Shown here piece by piece: positions 51,046-61,836 of a DNA stretch of 64,000 nt. The translations under genes and the position numbers were made by a program. The DNA comes from Brasilonema sp. CT11 (GTDB lineage Bacteria; Cyanobacteriota; Cyanobacteriia; Cyanobacteriales; Nostocaceae): contig NZ_JABXYX010000011.1 in the NCBI RefSeq assembly GCF_017982655.1, positions 1 to 64,000 on the forward strand, read 5' to 3'. The stretch's first letter is position 1. Each line of letters starts with the position of its first letter. The notes beneath the pieces were generated by a model, which searched no databases, was not told the DNA's origin, and saw nothing but the letters and a program-made list of their open reading frames with translations.

Positions 51046-52347
51046 ATGCGAAATACAACAGTTAAAAGTATGTTTGTTCGCGATATTCACAACTGCAAGC
51101 CACCTTTTTTTACTTCACAGAGGACTCATAAAGCTTTAGAGTCCAAAGTGGAAAAGCTTCTTGATCAATTACGTAATGCTAATGAAGAAATATATCGTGA
51201 AAAAGTTGCGCGTCTGCAGGCAGAGGAAGAACTAGAAAAGTCGGTTTTTTTACTACAGGCGACTCTAGAATCTACTACAGAAAGTGTTATTGCAATCAAC
51301 TTTAACGGACGTATTGTTAGCTTTAATCATAAATTTGTCCAAATGTGGCAGATTCCAGAGTCTATCATGAAATCACGCAACCATAAGCAATGCCTAAGTT
51401 TTTATCAAAACCAACTTAAAGATCCAGAAAGCTTTACTGGGCGTATTCAAAAACTAGATAGCGAAACAGATATTGAGGGTGACTCTACTCTAGAGTTAAA
51501 AGATGGTCGAATTTTCCAGCAATACTGGCGACCTTTGCTCCTTAATAATAAAATCATCGGCACAGTATGGAGTTTTCGCAACATCACCAACAGTTTACAA
51601 GCAGAAAAAGAAACTCCTGACACCATACCACAAGAAGAGGAGATTGGTGAGCACAAACAGGAATTGATATCCATGATTTGTCATGAATTCCGCTCTTCAC
51701 TGAATCTGATTTCATTCTCCACTAGCTTATTGAAACGTCATCTTCATAGTTGGAGTGAGCAGAAAAAGTTACAGTGTCTGCAACGGGTTCAAACAACAAT
51801 TGAACAGATGAATCAATTAATGGATGAAGTTTTCATTATTGATACAGTACAAGCAGGAAAGCTAAAGTTCGAGCCGAAACCACTGAATTTACTCCAATTC
51901 TGTCATGACATATTGGCTCAAATAAATTTGAGCGAAAGTAACCAGCACACAGTTACCTTTGTCAGTCAGGGTGATTGTCAAGTAGTTTGTATGGATAAAA
52001 AATTACTGCAGCCCATTCTCACGAATTTACTCTCGAATGCACTCAAGTATTCTCCAAAGGACAGCACAGTTGATATGGTGCTTTCTTGCCAAGATGAAAA
52101 AGTTATTTTCCAGATAAAAGATAGAGGAATTGGCATTCCCAAAACAGATCAACAACTATTGTTTGAACCATTTCATCGCGGTGAGAATGTTGGTGATATC
52201 CCAGGTAATGGACTGGGGCTAGCAATTGTCAAAAAGCTTGTGGATGTACATGGTGGTCAAATTATTGTGGATAGTGAAGTTGCAAAAGGTACTACGTTCA
52301 CAATCACATTGCCATTATGCAAACCAGTAACAATGACTAAACATTGA
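51046..52347 (+). CDS. PAS-domain sensor histidine kinase
   Basis: 433 residues, cytosolic. N-terminal coiled coil (about 25-70), PAS (about 70-180: LQATLESTTESVIAINFNGRIVSFNHKFVQMW), HisKA with His213 in ISMICHEFRSSLNLISFSTSLL, HATPase with NLLSNALKYSPKDS, IKDRGIGIPKTDQQLLFEPFHRG and GNGLGLAIVKKLVDVHGG. All kinase boxes are intact. The next gene, a receiver-AraC protein, begins at or just after its stop and is the likely partner. Confidence 0.93.
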   Translation: MRNTTVKSMFVRDIHNCKPPFFTSQRTHKALESKVEKLLDQLRNANEEIYREKVARLQAEEELEKSVFLLQATLESTTESVIAINFNGRIVSFNHKFVQMWQIPESIMKSRNHKQCLSFYQNQLKDPESFTGRIQKLDSETDIEGDSTLELKDGRIFQQYWRPLLLNNKIIGTVWSFRNITNSLQAEKETPDTIPQEEEIGEHKQELISMICHEFRSSLNLISFSTSLLKRHLHSWSEQKKLQCLQRVQTTIEQMNQLMDEVFIIDTVQAGKLKFEPKPLNLLQFCHDILAQINLSESNQHTVTFVSQGDCQVVCMDKKLLQPILTNLLSNALKYSPKDSTVDMVLSCQDEKVIFQIKDRGIGIPKTDQQLLFEPFHRGENVGDIPGNGLGLAIVKKLVDVHGGQIIVDSEVAKGTTFTITLPLCKPVTMTKH

Positions 52348-52355
52348 AGAAAACC

Positions 52356-53153
52356 ATGACAAAAGTTTTAGTGATTGAAGATGAGGCAGAAAATAGAAAT
52401 CTTTTTCTAGAATGCTTGGAGACGGAAGGGTTTGATGCCATTAGTGCAGAAAACGGTCTTGTTGGCGTCGAAAAAGCACAAGAACACGTGCCTGACTTGA
52501 TACTTTGTGATATTGTAATGCCGCAACTAGATGGTTACGGTGTTCTTACCTCGTTACGCCAAAACCGGGTAACAGCGATGATTCCCTTCATTTTTCTTAC
52601 TGCCAAGAGTACCACGGCTGAAGTTCGTCAAGGCATGAAGCTGGGAGCTGATGACTATCTTAGCAAACCTACGACTGTAGAGGAATTATTGGGAGCGATC
52701 GCCACCCGGCTAGAAAAACAAGCAGCCATCAGGCAGTGGTACGCTGCTCAGTTACAACAAGTCACAGCACCACCTCCTACTGACACTACTCTGCCAGCAG
52801 ATCCCCAGTCAATTTTTCCTGTTTTCCCTCAACTAAAAGAAGTGTTCGACTTTATCGAAGCCAATTATGAGCAGTCAATTAACTTGAGTGACGTAGCCCA
52901 GGCAGTTGGTTACGCCCCAGCTTACTTAACAGATCTCGTACGACGTCAGACGGGAAAAACGGTGCATCAATGGATTGTAGAGCGCCGGATGGCAAAGGCA
53001 TGCTCCTTGCTTCTGGAAACCAACCAGTCAATGGAGCAGATTGCTGAGGCAGTGGGATATCATTATACAGGCTGTTTGTTTCGTCAGTTTCGCATCAGCT
53101 TTGGAACGACTCCTCAAGTTTGGCGAAACCAACACCGCTCTAGTCCTGAGTGA
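52356..53153 (+). CDS. Response regulator with AraC-type DNA-binding domain
   Basis: 265 residues from ATG 52356 (MTKVLVIEDEAENRN); TTG 52344, overlapping the kinase stop by 4 bp, would add MKKT. Receiver with Asp52 in LILCDIVMPQLDG and Lys in DDYLSKPTT. The AraC-type double helix-turn-helix (about 160-262) has NLSDVAQAVGYAPAYLTDLVRRQTGKTVHQWIVERRM and MEQIAEAVGYHYTGCLFRQFRISFGTTPQVWR. It pairs with the upstream PAS kinase. Its last 14 bp overlap the end of the convergent protease gene. Targets unknown; the lanthipeptide genes 2 kb away are candidates by position only. Confidence 0.92.
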   Translation: MTKVLVIEDEAENRNLFLECLETEGFDAISAENGLVGVEKAQEHVPDLILCDIVMPQLDGYGVLTSLRQNRVTAMIPFIFLTAKSTTAEVRQGMKLGADDYLSKPTTVEELLGAIATRLEKQAAIRQWYAAQLQQVTAPPPTDTTLPADPQSIFPVFPQLKEVFDFIEANYEQSINLSDVAQAVGYAPAYLTDLVRRQTGKTVHQWIVERRMAKACSLLLETNQSMEQIAEAVGYHYTGCLFRQFRISFGTTPQVWRNQHRSSPE

Positions 53154-54354
53154 TTAGTCCTGAATGAACTAAGGTGAGGGCTTGGGAATTTACCTGATTC
53201 CGTTTTAGGAGTAGACCAGCAATCAGAACGCTAACACACAGCAAAGCTGGGGCCGCAGAAGGTTCGGGGATAGTTGTCGGTTTGGGTTGCACACCCAGTG
53301 CGAGGATAGCTTGATCTCCCCTAATCAAACCAAAGCCATGTCTGGAGTCGAAGCCCGGCGAAGGGTTATAAGCTGTATTTCTCAGAGCATTGTAGATTTC
53401 CGTGGGCGTTGCGTTCGGGTTTGCCTGTTGTAGCAGTGCTGCTACTGCAGCTGTAAACGGAGCTGATGCCGAGGTGCCGAAGAAGCTGAAGAAGCGTGAG
53501 TTGGCATCAATAGATGAATCTCCTCCTAAGTTGAAAGAAATTGGCAGCACATCCGGAGCCACAACATCAGGCTTCAGGGAACCTGGGTTACCTTCTGAAG
53601 AGAAGGGTTCCAGTTGTCCCTGCTCTACAACAACACCGAATCTTTGGTTTGAGTAAGATTGGGCGTTCCCGTAGTACACTGCTCCAACGGTCAGCGCATT
53701 TGGGTTATTTGCGTGCCCGTATATTGAGGTATTGGGAAAATCATTACCAGCGCCAGTGAAGTAAGAAATCCCCTGATTGAATACCGCGTCAATCGCCTGG
53801 TTGATAGAACCATTAGGAGGCTCTAGATCTAGAAGGTTTGAGGGTGCATCAGGAGTATTCTGGGGGAGTAAACCGATATCATCCACGATGATGTCTGCTC
53901 CAGCAGACGCCAGAGCTTGAATGGCTTGACCAATGGAATCTACGCCACCTGTACCTGTGTAAAACGCCAACTTGGCCCCTGGAGCCACAGCATGAATGAG
54001 TTGCGATATGGCGCGACCCTCATCTATGGCATCAGACCCAGTGTAGTCCTTCAGCACATTAATGCCAGATGGTAGGTAGCCATTGGCTACATTGGTTGCA
54101 TAGGTGTCTGCATTGCCAGAGACGTCGAAAGTTTGTGCTGTGGCAAAGCTATCGGATATTACTCCAATGGTGATTCCAGTACCGTCTAGACTGTAGCGAT
54201 CCCGTAAAATATCAATCCCTGTAGCTTTGGCTGCTGGCTCCATCGGCAGGGTGAAGGTAGCCGCTTGAACCTTAGCAACAAAGCTTCCAAGTAGTACAGT
54301 CGTCCCAATTACCCCTGAAGTAACAATTCTTTGAAGGAGTTTTAAATTTCTCAT
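53140..54354 (-). CDS. S8-like (subtilisin-fold) secreted protein with PEP-CTERM signal
   Basis: 404 residues from ATG 54354; TTG 54375 adds seven residues. Signal peptide (about 1-31, ending VQAA). Subtilase fold: Asp68 in GITIGVISDSF, a late catalytic-serine motif FFGTSASAPFTAAVAALLQQA, and DAVFNQGISYFTGAGND. The HGTH histidine motif is not seen: the corresponding part reads DEGRAISQLIHAVAPGAKLAF, as in a group of divergent subtilases. The C-terminus has PEPSAAPALLCVSVLIAGLLLKRN, a PEP-CTERM sorting signal, followed by 17 extra residues. Same strand as, and 0.6 kb downstream of, the lanthipeptide precursor. Confidence 0.88.
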   Translation of the reverse strand: MRNLKLLQRIVTSGVIGTTVLLGSFVAKVQAATFTLPMEPAAKATGIDILRDRYSLDGTGITIGVISDSFATAQTFDVSGNADTYATNVANGYLPSGINVLKDYTGSDAIDEGRAISQLIHAVAPGAKLAFYTGTGGVDSIGQAIQALASAGADIIVDDIGLLPQNTPDAPSNLLDLEPPNGSINQAIDAVFNQGISYFTGAGNDFPNTSIYGHANNPNALTVGAVYYGNAQSYSNQRFGVVVEQGQLEPFSSEGNPGSLKPDVVAPDVLPISFNLGGDSSIDANSRFFSFFGTSASAPFTAAVAALLQQANPNATPTEIYNALRNTAYNPSPGFDSRHGFGLIRGDQAILALGVQPKPTTIPEPSAAPALLCVSVLIAGLLLKRNQVNSQALTLVHSGLITQD

Positions 54355-54987
54355 GGCTTTTAAGGATCTTCTCAAAATTCACTTTTATTAGCTTAGGTGT
54401 AATTTAATGCTGATTATTGGTTAGCTAAGATTACACTTACAATCGGTCTTTAGCATTGTGAACCATCCCTCCTGACTTCTAGCATCTTAGGGAGTGTTTC
54501 AGTATATAAGATTTCATTTTACAAGGTTGTGGTATAAAAGTACAACATATGCAACTAACAGTATTTTTTTCATACCCTTGGCATTGTTGTTTCTCATATT
54601 AATGATTAACCAAATTCATTATCTGACTTTTCACGGGATGTGGAAAAGAAAAACTGGTTGCGACTAAGCATCGCAAACTATGGACTAATAAACTGAAACA
54701 TTAATTATGTTAAGGGTACAAGAAAACCCAGTGATACTAGCAGAACTTTCTGTCATGGTTCACTGGGCGATAGTACTTTGGATGTAAGTAGGTCAACATT
54801 GAAAAACACAAAATAGATTCTTTGTGATTACTTCGCTACCCTATCCTTCAGGGTCTACGGGAAGCCGCTTCGTATCTACATTGCGTTCCGTATGCCCTCC
54901 GGGCACGCTACGCGCTCCGTAATGACATTTTATGTTTCATGTTTGTTGAGCTACTTACTACTGATTATTAGCTTGTTAAACTTAGCC
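54355..54987. other. Intergenic region with a palindromic repeat cluster
   Basis: 633 bp between the S8-like gene and the lanthipeptide precursor. 54830-54922 contains GC-rich hairpin words (CCTTCAGGG, GCCCTCCGGGC). The rest is AT-rich. I looked for a second precursor (ELxxxxLexVxGG leader) on both strands and found none. Confidence 0.5.
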
Positions 54988-55191
54988 TTACTTTACGTTG
55001 TTGGCGTTCCTGTAAAAAGTCCAGCCAATACAATCACTATATTTGCTCCAGTTCTTACAACGGCCACCTGCGACTCCTTCGAGAGCTTCGTCAGATAATT
55101 CTCCTTCAGCAAATTGTGTGGTTGACTCTTGCTCAAACTCAGAGTTAGAGTTCATAGCTTGAGAGATAACTTTCTTCAGTTCGTCTTGCAT
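54988..55191 (-). CDS. lanA: Class II lanthipeptide precursor peptide
   Basis: 67 residues. An AGGAG ribosome-binding site (55200-55204 on the minus strand) sits 8 nt before the ATG. The acidic leader (1-43) ends ELSDEALEGVAGG, a classic double-glycine leader of LanM substrates. The 24-residue core (44-67) has Cys45 and Cys54, Ser49 and Ser52, Thr58, three aromatic W/Y pairs and a basic end. Only two Cys allow at most two thioether rings. The synthetase gene is divergent, 264 bp away. No C39 transporter/protease is in the window. The assignment rests on leader, size and neighbour. Confidence 0.88.
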   Translation of the reverse strand: MQDELKKVISQAMNSNSEFEQESTTQFAEGELSDEALEGVAGGRCKNWSKYSDCIGWTFYRNANNVK

Positions 55192-55455
55192 GATTTTGTC
55201 TCCTGTTTTCTAATTTGTGATGTCAATTTACTCTTGATACTTACTACAATAGCTAGCTTCAAAGAGAGCGTCAATTTGATTTTTTTAGAAGACAAACTAA
55301 ATAATGATCAGTCAGTCAAAAAAATAATCTAAAGATTTTGGAGTCAAAACTAAAAAATTTGAATTGTGATGCATAGTTGATATTATCTAAAATTCAAATT
55401 TGAAACTAATAGAACAAATATTCTGAACTCAATAAAAACAAAGGATACAAATAAC
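55192..55455. promoter_or_regulatory. Divergent promoter region of lanA and lanM
   Basis: 264 AT-rich bp between the two divergent start codons. It must contain both promoters. AAAATTTGAATTGTG and AAAATTCAAATTTGA (about 55352-55405) form loose inverted words that could be an operator. Confidence 0.45.
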
Positions 55456-58400
55456 ATGGATGTTTCACAGCAAGATTTACTTAAAATAGCCGAGCAAGCC
55501 AGTACACTCGTTGAGAGATTGGGTAATTGCTTTGTTCCGGATGAAGCTGAGGACAACAACAAGTTAGCTATGTCTCGCTTGAAAGCATGGTGTCAGGTGG
55601 TAGCACAAAGCAACCCAGAAAAGTTAGCCAAACGCCTTGTCTGGGATGAGCTGGATTCTGGCACTATTGTTAAGGTTCTCGGTGCTGTCCGTCTCGTCAA
55701 TGGGGAACAACTGCCCGTTTGGACGGAAACTTTGCGGGAAGCATTGCAAACTGATTGGGACACAGCTTATACAAGTACCAATCGCTGTCTGGAAACTGAA
55801 GAGCCAATTCCTTTTGAAGAAGTTTATCTGCCCTTTGTTTATATAGCGCAGCAAAAACTAATTGCACAGGTTGGTGCTAGTTGGCAATTGCTGTCCGAAG
55901 CAGTCCACATCAGCTTGGAACGTCAACTGCTATCGAAGTTCGCGTCTCTTGGTGTCCGGGCTTTAGACCTTGAGTTTTCAAAATTTAAAGCACAGAAGCA
56001 ATCTGCTGACATTTCCTTAACCCAACAGCAAAGTGAACATTCTAATGTGCAGTATCAAACTTTTGTTAAAGACTTAAAAGCAGAAGGACTGTTATCTTTC
56101 TTTCAAAAGTACAGTGTATTAGCACGGCTAGTGGCGACCACAATAGATTTTTGGGTAGAAGAAAAAGCGGAATTTTTTCAGCGGTTAGCATCAGATTTAC
56201 CAACCATCCAGCAAACGTTCCAAGAAAAAACAGCTCATATTGTTGCAATCCAATTTGAACTCTCCGATCCTCACAACCGGGGACGCTCCGTAATGGCTGT
56301 GACTTTTGAGTCTGGATTGAAGGTAATATATAAACCTAGAGGCTTAACTTTAGAAGCTACGTATTTTCAGTTACTCGCTTGGTGTAATCAGTATTTTGTA
56401 GAGACGTTGCATGCAACGTCTCTACACCCGTTCAAGATAATCAAAGTTATTAACTGCAAGACTCATGGCTGGATGGAGTATGTAGAGCATTTGCCTTGTG
56501 AATATGAGATAGCAGCACAGCGATACTATCAGCGTGTCGGAATGCTTCTGTGTTTAGTTTATTTGCTCCAAGGCAATGACTGCCATCAGGAAAATCTCAT
56601 CGCCTGTGGAGAACATCCGGTGCTGGTAGATTTGGAAACCCTTCTCCATCCCTATGCTCGCGAGGTTAATCCTACAGAGGAAGAGGAAGTAGGCGCACAA
56701 TCTCTAGCGGGTTTGCAATTGTTTGAAGATTCAGTGTTGCGGACTGGACTACTGCCAAGATGGGAATTTGGGGCAGATGGAGGCAAAGCTCACGATATTA
56801 GTGGTTTAGGAGGATTTGGCGAGCAGGAAATTCCTGTTCCCATACAAAAGTGGCAGAACATCAATACTGATAACATGGCATTGGAGTATGAGCCTGGTAT
56901 TATGTCAGCTGCCAACAATGTACCTTCGCTCAATGGCATCGCCCTTTTACCTTGTGATTACGTTAATGAAATTGTAGATGGTTTCCAAAAGATGTATCAG
57001 TTCTTGTTAGAACGACGAGAGGCTCTTTTAAAAACTGATAGTCCTTTGCCTCCTCTAGCTCATCAGAGAGTAAGATTTTTGTTTCGTAATACTCACGTCT
57101 ATGGTCATTTTTTGGAAAAAACCCTCTATCCACAATTTTTGCAGCATGGTGTAGACCGCAGTATTGAACTGGATGTGCTGAGTCGGGCATTTTTGGCAGC
57201 AAAAGAAAAACCCTCTATCTGGTCACTGCTTGCACTAGAACTACAAGCTATGGAACAAATGGATATTCCTTATTTCTTTGCTGACTCAAGCAGTGATGCT
57301 CTGACACTCAACTCTGAGTTAGTCATTAAGGGATATTTTAAAGAACCTAGTTATAACCGCATGATTTCTCGTCTACAGCAGCTTAATGATGGAGATTTAG
57401 CTCAACAGATTGGAATTATTCGGGGTTCTTTTTACTCACGGGTTGCTCGTGGCATGACTAATATTGCATCCACTCAGCGTGTTAGTGTTGGTTTGGATCT
57501 CAATGCAATCACTCCTTTAACACAAGCACAACTGGTACAAGAGGCAGTAGAGATTGCGAAAGAATTGCAAAAACGAGCAATTTACGCTCCTGACGGTAGT
57601 GTGACCTGGATTGGCATGGGATACCTCCCTAAAGCTCAACGGATGCAACTTCAGCCTTTGGGCTATGGCTTGTACGATGGTATTTGCGGAGTTGCTCTGT
57701 TTTTTGCGGCGTTGGCAAAAGTTACTGGTGATGAGGGATTTCGAGGTTTCGCATTGAGCGCCTTGCAAGACCTGAAAAAAACCTTACAGCACACAGAACC
57801 GAATGACCAAGTAAAATTTACCAAGGAAATAGGTATTGGTGGAGCGACTGGATTAGGGTCTATTATTTATACATTGGTACAAGTCAGTCAGTTTCTGGAT
57901 GAACCGGAGCTTCTCGATATTGCGAGTCTTGCAGCTTCATTGATAAGCCAAGAAAGCATTGAGAGCGATCGCCAATTTGACACAATCATTGGGGCAGCAG
58001 GGACAATACTAGGATTACTAACTTTGTACCAAGCAAAGCCAAACCCAGCCATTCTCGATCAAGCCCAATCCCTAGGTTATCACCTACTCAATAACCGCAC
58101 CAAGAGCGAGACTGGATTTAGAGCTTGGGCAACTTTGGAAGACAAGTTAGCAACGGGAATTTCTCATGGTGCAGCCGGCATTGCCTACGCCTTACTGCGA
58201 TTGTACAAAACTACTCAAGACCCGGTTTTTCTGGAAGCAGCAGAGGAAGCGATCGCCTATGAACGCAGCGTCTTCTCACCCAATGATGGTAACTGGCCAG
58301 ATGTACGAAATTTTTCCCTTAACAAGAGTAAACTATCCTTTATGACGAGTTGGTGTCATGGTGCTCCTGGTATTGGTTTAGCTCGTTTGGGAGCTCTTTC

Positions 58401-58749
58401 GATACTCGATACAGCAGAAATTCACCAAGAAATTGCAGTTGCCTTAAAGACAACCCAACAATTTGGTTTACAAAACATCGACCATCTGTGTTGCGGTAAC
58501 TTTGGCAGAATGGAGGTGTTATTGGTAGGAGCGTCCAAGCTGTCGCGTCCGGATCTGTGGAATACTGTTCAAAAACAGGCAGCACGAGTTGTAGCAAAGG
58601 CAAAACAAGTTGGTACTTTTGATCTGTTTTCTGAACTTTCCGGAGATATTTACAACCCTGGTTTCTTTCAAGGCACCTCTGGAATCGGTTATCAACTATT
58701 AAGACTGGCGTATCCTGAATCACTTCCTTCCGTGTTGTTATGGGAATAA
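55456..58749 (+). CDS. lanM: Class II lanthipeptide synthetase LanM with CCG-type cyclase
   Basis: 1097 residues, bifunctional. The N-terminal dehydratase (about 1-700) phosphorylates and eliminates Ser/Thr: VIYKPRGLTLEATYF, GNDCHQENLIACGEHPVLVDLETLLHP, VRFLFRNTHVYGHFL, MDIPYF. The C-terminal LanC cyclase (about 725-1097) has ISHGAAGIAYALL, Cys967 in SWCHGAPGIGLARLG, and Cys1012-Cys1013 in LCCGNFG. The CCG motif gives a three-Cys zinc site, as in ProcM and other substrate-tolerant LanMs (established). A 28-bp palindrome is inserted in frame at 56398-56425. AAAGGA before the ATG serves as ribosome-binding site. Confidence 0.96.
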   Translation: MDVSQQDLLKIAEQASTLVERLGNCFVPDEAEDNNKLAMSRLKAWCQVVAQSNPEKLAKRLVWDELDSGTIVKVLGAVRLVNGEQLPVWTETLREALQTDWDTAYTSTNRCLETEEPIPFEEVYLPFVYIAQQKLIAQVGASWQLLSEAVHISLERQLLSKFASLGVRALDLEFSKFKAQKQSADISLTQQQSEHSNVQYQTFVKDLKAEGLLSFFQKYSVLARLVATTIDFWVEEKAEFFQRLASDLPTIQQTFQEKTAHIVAIQFELSDPHNRGRSVMAVTFESGLKVIYKPRGLTLEATYFQLLAWCNQYFVETLHATSLHPFKIIKVINCKTHGWMEYVEHLPCEYEIAAQRYYQRVGMLLCLVYLLQGNDCHQENLIACGEHPVLVDLETLLHPYAREVNPTEEEEVGAQSLAGLQLFEDSVLRTGLLPRWEFGADGGKAHDISGLGGFGEQEIPVPIQKWQNINTDNMALEYEPGIMSAANNVPSLNGIALLPCDYVNEIVDGFQKMYQFLLERREALLKTDSPLPPLAHQRVRFLFRNTHVYGHFLEKTLYPQFLQHGVDRSIELDVLSRAFLAAKEKPSIWSLLALELQAMEQMDIPYFFADSSSDALTLNSELVIKGYFKEPSYNRMISRLQQLNDGDLAQQIGIIRGSFYSRVARGMTNIASTQRVSVGLDLNAITPLTQAQLVQEAVEIAKELQKRAIYAPDGSVTWIGMGYLPKAQRMQLQPLGYGLYDGICGVALFFAALAKVTGDEGFRGFALSALQDLKKTLQHTEPNDQVKFTKEIGIGGATGLGSIIYTLVQVSQFLDEPELLDIASLAASLISQESIESDRQFDTIIGAAGTILGLLTLYQAKPNPAILDQAQSLGYHLLNNRTKSETGFRAWATLEDKLATGISHGAAGIAYALLRLYKTTQDPVFLEAAEEAIAYERSVFSPNDGNWPDVRNFSLNKSKLSFMTSWCHGAPGIGLARLGALSILDTAEIHQEIAVALKTTQQFGLQNIDHLCCGNFGRMEVLLVGASKLSRPDLWNTVQKQAARVVAKAKQVGTFDLFSELSGDIYNPGFFQGTSGIGYQLLRLAYPESLPSVLLWE
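56398..56425. repeat. 28-bp perfect palindrome inside lanM
   Basis: GTAGAGACGTTGCA (56398-56411) followed directly by its reverse complement TGCAACGTCTCTAC (56412-56425). It encodes the VETLHATSLH part of the dehydratase domain. This unit is a common dispersed repeat in cyanobacteria (from memory). Confidence 0.9.
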
Positions 58750-58783: not shown

Positions 58784-59341
58784 TTGCCTGGGCGTTGGAT
58801 ATTGGCGGAGTTTGTTTTAACAATTATGTTACTAACAAGAGTGCAAGAGTTTAGTACCAGTCATACACCTTCTTTCTTCAATCAGTCACTACAAAATTGG
58901 TTGAGTGAGTGGAGTGATGTTTTCTGGTTTGGGATTGTGCTGTTACTACTAATACAGTTGACGAAAACTGTATTTATATTGCGAAAAATACAACAGCAAC
59001 TAGCGCGAGAGCAACAACGATGGCGACAGTATACTCAACAACAGGAGAATCTCACTGCACTCCAAGCACAACTTTGCGTTGCATATGAAAGCTATGACGC
59101 GTTAGGACACGCATTAATTGGGATTAATATTCAGTTACAAACTGCTCTAAAACTTTGGTCTATCGATCCTAGTCAAGCACAAAAGTTTTTAGCACAAGCC
59201 CAACACTTAGGAGTTAGCACTATGCAAGATCTTCGCAATAGTGTTCGTGTGCTACGGACGCATAGTGTACAGGCACGAGCAGAACTGTCCTTTAAGAATA
59301 ACTCAGAATGCAAAACACAGAACGTAAACCCTGAGCGTTAG
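58784..59341 (+). pseudogene. Truncated sensor kinase with degenerate phosphoacceptor
   Basis: 185 codons from TTG 58784, 34 bp after lanM; the frame stays open upstream into lanM but has no ATG. Two hydrophobic segments (about 8-20, 46-66), a coiled coil, then a HisKA_3-like dimerisation domain: GINIQLQTALKLWSIDPSQAQKFLAQAQHLG matches the intact kinase at 48012 (LNIQLQTAVKLWKLDPTKAKFFL). The phosphoacceptor position is Tyr104 (YESYDALG) where RDLHDSLG is expected. The ATPase domain is absent. It is either a decayed gene or a small non-catalytic dimer that could titrate or steer other kinases. Confidence 0.75.
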
Positions 59342-59906: not shown

Positions 59907-60971
59907 ATGAGAAATCATTCTAAGCTTGCTGTCAAATTTACCTTGCTCCTTTCGCTAGTTTTTATAGGTGCTGTGTTAATGAGTAGTTTTGCTTTATCAA
60001 AAACACTTAAGCATAGAGCTGAAGATGAAATAAACTATAGGGGGCAGCTTATCGTACAAATGATAAATTCAGTCAGAGATTATACTGCTAACCACATCAC
60101 TACTCTAGTTGCACCTAACCTGGAAACTAAACAACATTTTATTCCCGAAAGTATACCAAGTTTTGCAGTGAGAGAGGTATTTGAGAATTTACGAAAAAAC
60201 AAAGAATATAAAGATTACTTTTACAAAGATGCCACACTCAACCCAACCAATTTAAGAGACAAAGCAGATGAATTTGAAAGACAACTTCTAGAAAACTTTC
60301 GTAACGAGCCAGAGTTGAAAATCTTGTCAGGTTTTCGGAATATGTCTGGAGACAAATTATTTTACAGTGCTCGTCCTCTGACTCTTAAAGATTCAAGCTG
60401 CCTACGTTGTCATGGCACTCCAGAAACAGCCCCTAAGAGTTATGTAGAAACCTATGGAACAGAAAACGGTTTTGGGTGGAAGCTCAATGAAATTATTGCT
60501 ACTCAAGTTGTTTATTTTCCTGCCAGTGAAATTTTTGACAGAGTTTCTCAAGGTTTTTTATTATTTATCGCAATTTTTCTTGGTATTTTTACCTTAGTGA
60601 TTTTTACATTTAATGATTTGCTGAAGCGAAACGTTCTCCAGCCTATCAAACCAATGGCTCAACTGGCTCAAAAAATTAGCACTGATACATTTGTTTATGA
60701 TCAAAATGAGAAAGTTGAACTTAGAAGTTTGGTCGCGATCGCTAAGCGCAATGACGAGTTAGGACAATTGGGACAGGTTTTTCTGAGAATGGTGCATCAA
60801 GTTTACACTCGTGAGCAACGCTTGAAAAAACAGATGCAAGAACTAAGTATCCAAATTGATGAAACTAAGAAAGCTCGTCAAGTGGCTGAAATTGTTGATG
60901 CTGATTATTTTCAAAATTTAAGTATACAGGCAAAAGAAATTAGAAAAAAATGGGCAGAAACCGACTCGTGA
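59907..60971 (+). CDS. Membrane heme-c sensor protein (Tll0287/DUF3365 type) with HAMP
   Basis: 354 residues. Membrane segment (about 10-30), a periplasmic or lumenal DUF3365 domain (about 35-205), second membrane segment (about 213-235), HAMP-like linker (about 238-300) and a helical tail. The c-type heme site is CLRCH (Cys165, Cys168, His169), within LKDSSCLRCHGTPETAPKSYVETYG, typical of Tll0287-like redox or heme sensors. No kinase or cyclase output is fused. It is followed by a MinD/ParA-like gene 61 bp on, so a joint function is likely. Confidence 0.9.
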   Translation: MRNHSKLAVKFTLLLSLVFIGAVLMSSFALSKTLKHRAEDEINYRGQLIVQMINSVRDYTANHITTLVAPNLETKQHFIPESIPSFAVREVFENLRKNKEYKDYFYKDATLNPTNLRDKADEFERQLLENFRNEPELKILSGFRNMSGDKLFYSARPLTLKDSSCLRCHGTPETAPKSYVETYGTENGFGWKLNEIIATQVVYFPASEIFDRVSQGFLLFIAIFLGIFTLVIFTFNDLLKRNVLQPIKPMAQLAQKISTDTFVYDQNEKVELRSLVAIAKRNDELGQLGQVFLRMVHQVYTREQRLKKQMQELSIQIDETKKARQVAEIVDADYFQNLSIQAKEIRKKWAETDS

Positions 60972-61032: not shown

Positions 61033-61836
61033 ATGTCTAAAATTGTATCCATTCATTCCTTCCGTGGTGGAACTGGTAAATCAAACGTAACTGCGAACCT
61101 AGCAACTATCATCGCTCGTTCTGGTCAACGAGTTGGCATTGTCGATACCGATATTCAATCGCCTGGAATTCACGTTCTTTTTGGTCTCAATGAGGAAAAA
61201 ATAGGCTACACCTTGAATGATTATCTGTGGGGACGCTGTGCTGTTGAAGATGCTGCATACGATGTCACTCCACTTCTCAAGATGAGCCATAAAAACACTG
61301 GGATAAGAGGTAATATTTACCTGATTCCCTCCAGCATTAAAACTGGCGAGATATCTCGAATATTGCGTGAAGGATATGACGCACGCCTACTCAACGAGGG
61401 TTTCGGCAATCTCATCCGCCGTTTTAAACTGGATTACTTATTCATTGATACTCACCCTGGTATTAATGAAGAAACCTTGCTTTCTGTGATTCTTTCTAAT
61501 GTCTTAGTTATTATCCTGCGTCCAGACCACCAGGACTACCAAGGTACGGCAGTCACTGTAGATGTTGCTCGCAAATTAGAGGTGCCTAAAATGCTGCTGG
61601 TTGTTAACAAGGCACTACCAACAATCAACTTTCAGGTTTTAGGGCAACAGATGCAAAAAACTTACAACACAACTGTGGCTAGTATTTTACCTGTCTGTGA
61701 AGAGATGTTTCAATTGGGTAGCAGTGATGTTTTCAGTCTGCGCTATCCGAATCATCCTTGGACACAGGGTGTGAGTGCGATAGCTTCGCTGCTGCCCTTC
61801 GGCAGATCGCAAAACACATCGTTCCAAACAAAATAA
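61033..61836 (+). CDS. MinD/ParA-like ATPase
   Basis: 267 residues. Deviant Walker A SFRGGTGKSNVTANLA (residues 9-24) with Arg11 where the usual signature Lys stands, switch I VGIVDTDIQSPGIHVLFG, Walker B-like YLFIDTHPGINEETLL, and NKALPTINF. No MinD amphipathic tip is seen at the C-terminus. The last 20 residues (SAIASLLPFGRSQ...) come from an inserted repeat at 61777-61810. Same strand as the heme-c sensor; it may position or switch that sensor or a complex. Confidence 0.88.
   Translation: MSKIVSIHSFRGGTGKSNVTANLATIIARSGQRVGIVDTDIQSPGIHVLFGLNEEKIGYTLNDYLWGRCAVEDAAYDVTPLLKMSHKNTGIRGNIYLIPSSIKTGEISRILREGYDARLLNEGFGNLIRRFKLDYLFIDTHPGINEETLLSVILSNVLVIILRPDHQDYQGTAVTVDVARKLEVPKMLLVVNKALPTINFQVLGQQMQKTYNTTVASILPVCEEMFQLGSSDVFSLRYPNHPWTQGVSAIASLLPFGRSQNTSFQTK
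61777..61810. repeat. Palindromic repeat at the 3-prime end of the ParA-like gene
   Basis: GCGATAGCTTCGCTGC (61777-61792) then TGCCCTTCGGCAGATCGC (61793-61810). The first half is the inverse of the unit at 41226-41242 and 41415-41431. Confidence 0.8.

What the first reader, a model, noticed from the sequence alone, without database searches (positions are those of the whole stretch)
54988..58749. Compact lanthipeptide locus: divergent lanA and CCG-type lanM
A 67-residue peptide with an acidic ELSDEALEGVAGG leader lies divergent to a full LanM. The LanM zinc site is Cys967/Cys1012-Cys1013 (CCG), the ProcM-like three-Cys type linked in the literature to substrate-tolerant enzymes. The core sequence is not one I know. 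There is one visible precursor and no transporter, so export and leader removal must come from elsewhere. This is the best candidate for an undescribed system in the window.
Basis: partly seen in the sequence, partly recalled or inferred. Interest (0 to 1): 0.8.

Follow-up and report, generated by a model that had tools for sequence, protein, structure and literature searches.

The report
Cyanobacterial lanthipeptide cluster with shortened leader
This is a real gene pair with which a cyanobacterium makes a ring-containing peptide, and its peptide precursor has lost the folded protein-like part that its relatives carry, which makes it possible to test what that part is for.

Summary
Window 54988-55191 (-) encodes a 67-aa double-Gly precursor, and 55456-58749 (+) a full LanM (TIGR03897, 1004 bits) with a Cys967/Cys1012-Cys1013 zinc site. 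The pair is conserved in seven other genomes.

A complete NHLP-type exporter (peptidase-ABC, second ABC, HlyD) starts 1.9 kb beyond the window edge and is syntenic in relatives. There is also no sign of ProcM-like dispersed substrates: one LanM and one such precursor were found in the genome.

New points. (1) The 43-aa leader is an NHLP (nitrile-hydratase-like) leader that lost the ~54-residue NHase fold, keeping an N-terminal helix and the L(X)4L-GG end. Related LanM lineages lost it two or three times. (2) Cores carry a doublet C-x3-[S/T]: 55 of 69 Cys against 7.9 expected; 19 of 23 held out. This predicts two small N-to-C rings, as in MppE and nostolysamide. (3) A hydrophobic LanM residue before the dehydratase domain is present in 21/21 enzymes with folded-leader substrates and absent in 12/12 with short leaders, suggesting a docking plug lost with the fold.

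Verdict: new variant of a known kind. Product, ring direction and plug are predictions.

The parts
54988..55191 (-). lanA, 67-aa precursor MQDELKKVISQAMNSNSEFEQESTTQFAEGELSDEALEGVAGG / RCKNWSKYSDCIGWTFYRNANNVK
   Evidence: conserved divergent to lanM in seven other genomes
55063..55191 (-). leader: N-terminal helix block (MQDELKKVISQAMN) plus L(X)4L and GG block (ELSDEALEGVAGG); the NHase-like body of NHLP leaders is absent
   Evidence: alignment A1 with NHLP-type leaders
54991..55062 (-). core RCKNWSKYSDCIGWTFYRNANNVK with two C-x2-W-[S/T] ring motifs (CKNWS, CIGWT)
55199..55204 (-). AGGAGA ribosome-binding site of lanA
   Evidence: read from the sequence
55456..58749 (+). lanM, class II lanthipeptide synthetase, 1097 aa
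   Evidence: TIGR03897 1004 bits; DUF4135 219-609 and LANC_like 734-1095
55996..56031 (+). LanM residues 181-192, segment where the hydrophobic residue found in LanMs with NHLP-fold leaders is missing (ADISL-TQQQ instead of AFTFLWGRG)
56578..56586 (+). LanM dehydratase D375-x-H377 motif
58354..58356 (+). LanM zinc ligand Cys967
58489..58494 (+). LanM zinc ligands Cys1012-Cys1013 (CCG)
53140..54375 (-). S8-type subtilase with C-terminal PEP-CTERM-like anchor, conserved neighbour of the precursors; catalytic His position reads Glu
51046..52347 (+). sensor histidine kinase, conserved neighbour
52344..53153 (+). response regulator with AraC-type HTH, conserved neighbour
58784..59341 (+). short membrane protein with a HisKA_3 segment, neighbour in the short-leader group
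59907..60971 (+). Tll0287-like/HAMP sensor, conserved neighbour
61033..61836 (+). ParA/MinD-like ATPase, conserved neighbour between lanM and the exporter

Best explanation
This is a class II lanthipeptide cluster that descends from cyanobacterial NHLP-LanM clusters. LanM phosphorylates and eliminates Ser6 and Thr15 of the core, then adds Cys2 to Dha6 and Cys11 to Dhb15, so that each Cys lies N-terminal to its partner. The product would be two separate five-residue rings followed by a linear tail ending RNANNVK. The NHLP-type exporter encoded 7.1 kb downstream cuts after Gly43 with its C39 domain and secretes the peptide. The leader is an NHLP leader that has lost its NHase-derived fold. LanM now works with only an N-terminal helix and the L(X)4L-GG end, and has lost the hydrophobic residue that in relatives probably plugs into the folded leader. 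Shown by sequence: genes, homology, synteny, leader deletion, core motif, residue loss. Inferred: ring direction, cleavage, export by this transporter, role of the residue.
For: LanM family and active sites. Short leader aligned to NHLP leaders at both ends with a ~54-residue gap between. Short-leader LanMs are one clade (100/100), NHLP-type outgroups have long leaders, and two further short-leader lineages exist. Exporter equivalogs TIGR03796 (1183 bits), TIGR03797 (1040), TIGR03794 (422), all over cut-off. Exporter downstream of lanM in eight relative loci whose LanM position was checked base for base, and directly on the fetched locus in L015, L022, L024, L025, L027 and L031. Core motif: Ser/Thr at Cys+4 in 55 of 69 Cys (7.9 expected, 0 of 20,000 shuffles), held out 19 of 23 (3.3 expected). 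Ring precedents: MppM joins Cys79 and Ser83 in ACWRWSG (PMC11791876); NpuM joins Cys5-Thr9 and Cys14-Ser18 (PMC13060382). MppM still forms the ring when residues 1-55 of the MppE leader are removed (PMC12715784). LanM residue: hydrophobic in 21/21 with NHLP-fold leaders, absent in 12/12 short; PMC12715784 says that insertion of hydrophobic side chains into the leader nucleus is how LanMs bind NHLPs.
Against: No mass, activity or expression data. Ser9 could also be dehydrated. A few sister cores (L014, L021, L025, L148) break the doublet, so ring patterns vary in the family. The 21/21 vs 12/12 contrast is not phylogenetically independent: it amounts to two or three events, and the plug position was not checked against the published LanM work (Nat Commun 2025, 16:9273, not held). 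The genome is a draft of 411 contigs, so further precursors may be missed.
Confidence: 0.8

Rival explanations
1. Same cluster, but rings form in the usual C-to-N direction: Ser6-Cys11 forms an inner ring and Cys2 pairs with Thr15 or stays free.
For: Most LanMs close rings with Cys C-terminal to the dehydro residue (PMC13060382); Ser6 precedes Cys11 here.
Against: The Cys-to-Ser/Thr +4 spacing is fixed while the spacing between the two units varies from about 4 to 10 residues across relatives; ProcM-type enzymes close both ways, and the same C-x3-[S/T] rings were shown in MppE and nostolysamide.
Confidence: 0.13
2. A ProcM-like combinatorial system: this LanM modifies many dispersed precursors.
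For: Three-Cys zinc site; leaders conserved and cores variable in relatives, with up to five tandem copies.
Against: Profile searches found one precursor with this leader and no NHLP leader in the genome. The Nif11-type precursor read out at C272 lacks core Cys, and C405 and C104 gave no double-Gly ORF under the filter used. NpuM also has three Cys but only one substrate.
Confidence: 0.08
3. A decayed cluster: relatives keep several precursors, here one is left and the system no longer makes a product.
For: Several relatives have 2-5 tandem copies, and here there are ~600 bp without a recognisable gene between the precursor and the subtilase.
Against: Precursor, RBS, LanM, exporter and neighbours are intact, LanM keeps its catalytic residues, and the core keeps both ring motifs. 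Relatives L017, L020 and L021 also show a single copy.
Confidence: 0.05
4. The short leader is ancestral or unrelated to NHLP leaders, and the NHase fold was inserted in the sister group.
For: The tree at the base of the 24-LanM clade is open, so the order of events is not fixed by the data.
Against: The NHLP-type outgroups carry the NHase fold, and the N-terminal blocks of short and long leaders match (MQDELKNVISQAMNT / MHEELKKVISQAMNT).
Confidence: 0.1

Closest known systems
NHLP-LanM clusters of cyanobacteria with the three-gene NHLP exporter (Haft 2010, PMC2887384; group IV of Wang 2011, PMC3140520)
   Same: LanM, double-Gly precursor, and exporter equivalogs of TIGR03794/03796/03797; conserved leader with variable core
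   Different: Leader lacks the NHase-like fold and fails TIGR03793; exporter separated from lanM by several other genes
Nostolysamide, NpuA/NpuM (PMC13060382)
   Same: Cyanobacterial three-Cys LanM; single precursor; C-x3-[S/T] rings with Cys N-terminal
   Different: Nif11 leader of 78 aa, four rings with an overlapping part, GNAT acylation; no acyltransferase seen here
MppE/MppM of Moorena (PMC11791876, PMC12715784)
   Same: Core ring C-x-x-W-S joining Cys79 and Ser83, the same motif as CKNWS and CIGWT
   Different: One ring, Nif11 leader, brominase and prenyltransferase present
Prochlorosins / ProcM
   Same: LanM zinc site with three Cys
   Different: Nif11 leaders, many dispersed substrates; here one substrate found
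Proteusins such as SrpE/SrpI (PMC10858898)
   Same: L(X)4L motif before GG; the structured NHLP part was dispensable for one enzyme
   Different: There the fold is present and was removed experimentally; here it is naturally absent

Membership tests
Class II lanthipeptide cluster | LanM with dehydratase and LanC-like cyclase domains over family cut-off | tested here: met
   TIGR03897 1004.4 bits vs cut-off 304; Pfam domains
Class II lanthipeptide cluster | Adjacent precursor with GG leader and Cys plus Ser/Thr in the core, conserved with LanM | tested here: met
Class II lanthipeptide cluster | (Methyl)lanthionine product | not testable with these tools
   needs co-expression and mass spectrometry
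ProcM-type (three-Cys) LanM | Three Cys zinc ligands | tested here: met
   Cys967, Cys1012, Cys1013, shared by all short-leader and NHLP-leader LanMs compared
ProcM-type (three-Cys) LanM | Many substrates in the genome (prochlorosin-like; not a trait of all members, NpuM has one) | tested here: not met
   one precursor with this leader; no NHLP leader found
ProcM-type (three-Cys) LanM | Rings closed in both directions | not testable with these tools
   inferred only from the core motif
NHLP / proteusin precursor (TIGR03793) | Match to leader model over cut-off, NHase-like fold | tested here: not met
   11.7 bits vs cut-off 50.9, only 14 residues matched
NHLP / proteusin precursor (TIGR03793) | Homology of leader ends to NHLP leaders of close LanM relatives | tested here: met
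   alignment A1
NHLP bacteriocin export system | TIGR03794, TIGR03796, TIGR03797 over cut-off | tested here: met
   422, 1183 and 1040 bits, same contig, outside the window
Nif11 leader precursor (TIGR03798) | Match over cut-off | tested here: not met
   12.4 bits vs 32.3

The most novel reading that the evidence does not exclude
The folded NHase-like body of NHLP leaders is mainly a docking module for LanM, held by a hydrophobic plug on the enzyme. It has been lost two or three times together with that plug, while the NHLP exporter was kept. This would show that the exporter does not need the fold and that leader fold and enzyme plug co-evolve.
Probability: 0.45. Interest if true: 0.72.

Novelty: new variant of a known kind. 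Interest (0 to 1): 0.55.

Why it matters
Why NHLP (proteusin) leaders keep an enzyme-like fold is an open question; Haft and colleagues argued that handling by the exporter keeps it conserved (PMC2887384). These short-leader clusters are natural deletions with closely related full-leader LanMs (70-75% identical), sometimes in the same genome (Scytonema NIES-4073, Tolypothrix VB511288). Leader, LanM and exporter can be swapped between the two types. A short leader that drives N-to-C ring closure would also be handy for peptide engineering.

Tried and rejected
Searches for further precursors in the genome gave Nif11-type and other double-Gly peptides but none with this leader. I looked for decayed precursor copies in the ~600 bp between precursor and subtilase by six-frame reading; none seen. 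A text search for leader strings found no paper. The paper on LanM-NHLP binding (Nat Commun 2025, 16:9273) is not held, so the plug is tied to it only through a citing paper. I considered that the short leader was a mis-called start of a long NHLP ORF: rejected, stops lie just upstream in frame. I considered a single deletion for all short leaders: the tree gives two or three losses. No structure prediction was run: a monomer model would not show leader docking.

Full report
OBSERVATION. Both ORFs exist as stated. The precursor (54988-55191, minus strand, 67 aa) and lanM (55456-58749, plus strand, 1097 aa) are divergent and 264 bp apart. The precursor has an AGGAGA ribosome-binding site and stops just upstream in frame. 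LanM is a full class II synthetase (TIGR03897 1004 bits; DUF4135 and LANC_like). Its zinc site reads Cys967 and Cys1012-Cys1013-Gly, where LicM2 has CHG.

MORE THAN CHANCE. A scan of 84,980 species genomes with LanM gave 22 loci. In those with the closest LanMs (about 80-92% identity) one to several divergent double-Gly ORFs of the same family lie directly upstream. A further search of same-family genomes added L140, with a 77% identical LanM and five tandem copies. Leaders of tandem copies are 78-98% identical while their cores are 38-62% identical, the usual mark of a precursor family.

TRANSPORTER. On the same contig (C81), 65869-73977, minus strand, lie four genes, each over its NCBIfam cut-off: an ABC permease/ATPase (TIGR03797, 1040 bits), a C39 peptidase-ABC protein (TIGR03796, 1183 bits), a HlyD protein (TIGR03794, 422 bits) and a cyclic-nucleotide-binding protein (TIGR03896, 338 bits). 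The nearest gene ends 7.1 kb after lanM and 1.9 kb beyond the window. In relatives a TIGR03796 exporter lies downstream of lanM at roughly 8 to 24 kb; for eight loci I confirmed that the contig named in that search holds the same LanM base for base. In L015, L022, L024, L025, L027 and L031 part or all of the exporter lies on the fetched locus itself. C39 proteins of the short-leader group are 83-97% identical to that of the window genome, those of long-leader clusters about 69-71%.

NEIGHBOURHOOD. The order histidine kinase, AraC-type response regulator, subtilase, precursor(s), lanM, then in most loci a Tll0287-like/HAMP sensor and a ParA-like ATPase, recurs with variations. No further peptide-modifying enzyme was recognised in the window part of the cluster.

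LEADER. The leaders of LanMs at 70-75% identity are long NHLP-type leaders: MHEELKKVISQAMNTRFEFEQ, then the NHase-like part, then ELSEEALEAVAGG. The window leader aligns to both ends and lacks the middle ~54 residues. It fails TIGR03793 (11.7 of 50.9 bits), so it is not an NHLP member by that test, but it appears to derive from one. Eight short-leader LanMs form one clade (100/100). Two other short types exist: MSNEQLMQ... in the Calothrix group and a 23-aa leader in L106. The NHLP-type outgroups all keep the fold, so it was probably lost two or three times; the order at the base is open.

CORE. In 33 cores with 69 Cys, Ser/Thr stands at Cys+4 in 55 cases; the shuffle mean is 7.9, the next offset has 11, and none of 20,000 shuffles reached 55 at any offset. 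In 13 cores not used to find the motif it is 19 of 23 (3.3 expected). Related cores are not independent, so the counts overstate the number of events. The window core has CKNWS and CIGWT. MppM joins Cys79 and Ser83 in ACWRWSG (PMC11791876). NpuM joins Cys5-Thr9 and, by mutant data, Cys14-Ser18 (PMC13060382). These are rings with Cys on the N-terminal side, which three-Cys LanMs are known to close. I therefore predict two separate five-residue rings. Some sister cores differ: L021 and L148 have T-x2-C twice, and L014 and L025 are irregular.

LANM RESIDUE. Comparing LanMs by leader type, one column just before the dehydratase domain stands out. It is Trp in all 12 LanMs with MHEEL-type leaders, and Leu, Phe, Ile or Val in nine others with NHLP leaders. 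It is a gap or Gln in all 12 short-leader LanMs, and mixed in LanMs with Nif11 leaders. [quoted passage not shown] The simplest reading is that the plug was lost when its socket was lost. These are few independent events, and the contact is inferred.

SUBSTRATE NUMBER. TIGR03897 finds one LanM in the genome, and the precursor profile finds one precursor. No TIGR03793 leader was found. Five Nif11-model matches exist; the precursor read out at C272 has a core without Cys. So a ProcM-like dispersed system is not supported here.

VERDICT. A real, probably working lanthipeptide cluster, a new variant of the cyanobacterial NHLP-LanM kind. Its value is less the core than the natural deletion of the leader fold with the linked change in LanM.

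Noticed in passing
window 53140-54375 (-): The subtilase next to the precursors keeps Asp, Asn and Ser positions (GTSASAP) but the catalytic His position reads Glu (DEGRA) in all 13 homologues aligned; either an inactive protease or a Ser-Glu-Asp type. Candidate for second-step trimming.
   Followed up: partly
G000 contig C81:65869-73977, outside the window: Complete NHLP-type exporter (ABC, C39-ABC, HlyD, cyclic-nucleotide-binding protein).
   Followed up: yes
L106 295-474 and 1047-1226: An ultra-short 23-aa leader (MLDELKTNEGELTDEALEAVAGG) next to a 66% identical LanM, in several tandem copies; smallest form of this leader seen.
   Followed up: partly
L021 6914-7294 and L148 5204-5581: Cores with an internal duplicate of T-x2-C (KIKKFTWDC twice; WTWKC/WTKKC) instead of C-x3-[S/T], suggesting a switch of ring direction in sister peptides.
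   Followed up: no
most cores, e.g. window 54991-55011: The core end RNAN(N/K/D)(L/K)(V/A) is conserved though it holds no ring residue; its role is unexplained.
   Followed up: no
L140 1-1232: Five tandem near-identical precursor copies upstream of a short-leader LanM.
   Followed up: no
L122 LanM: LanM homologue whose zinc ligands align as A, C, W instead of C, C, C; maybe a dehydratase without cyclase activity, or an alignment slip.
   Followed up: no
L056 404-682 (-), genome contig C298: A 92-aa double-Gly peptide with a Cys-containing, Gly/Val-repeat core (GGCAPTCGVPTVKPPTC...), unlike the lanA family; a separate bacteriocin-like precursor.
   Followed up: no
window 51046-52347: Histidine kinase resembles the scytonemin-cluster kinase NF045595 (473 bits, cut-off 865).
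   Followed up: no
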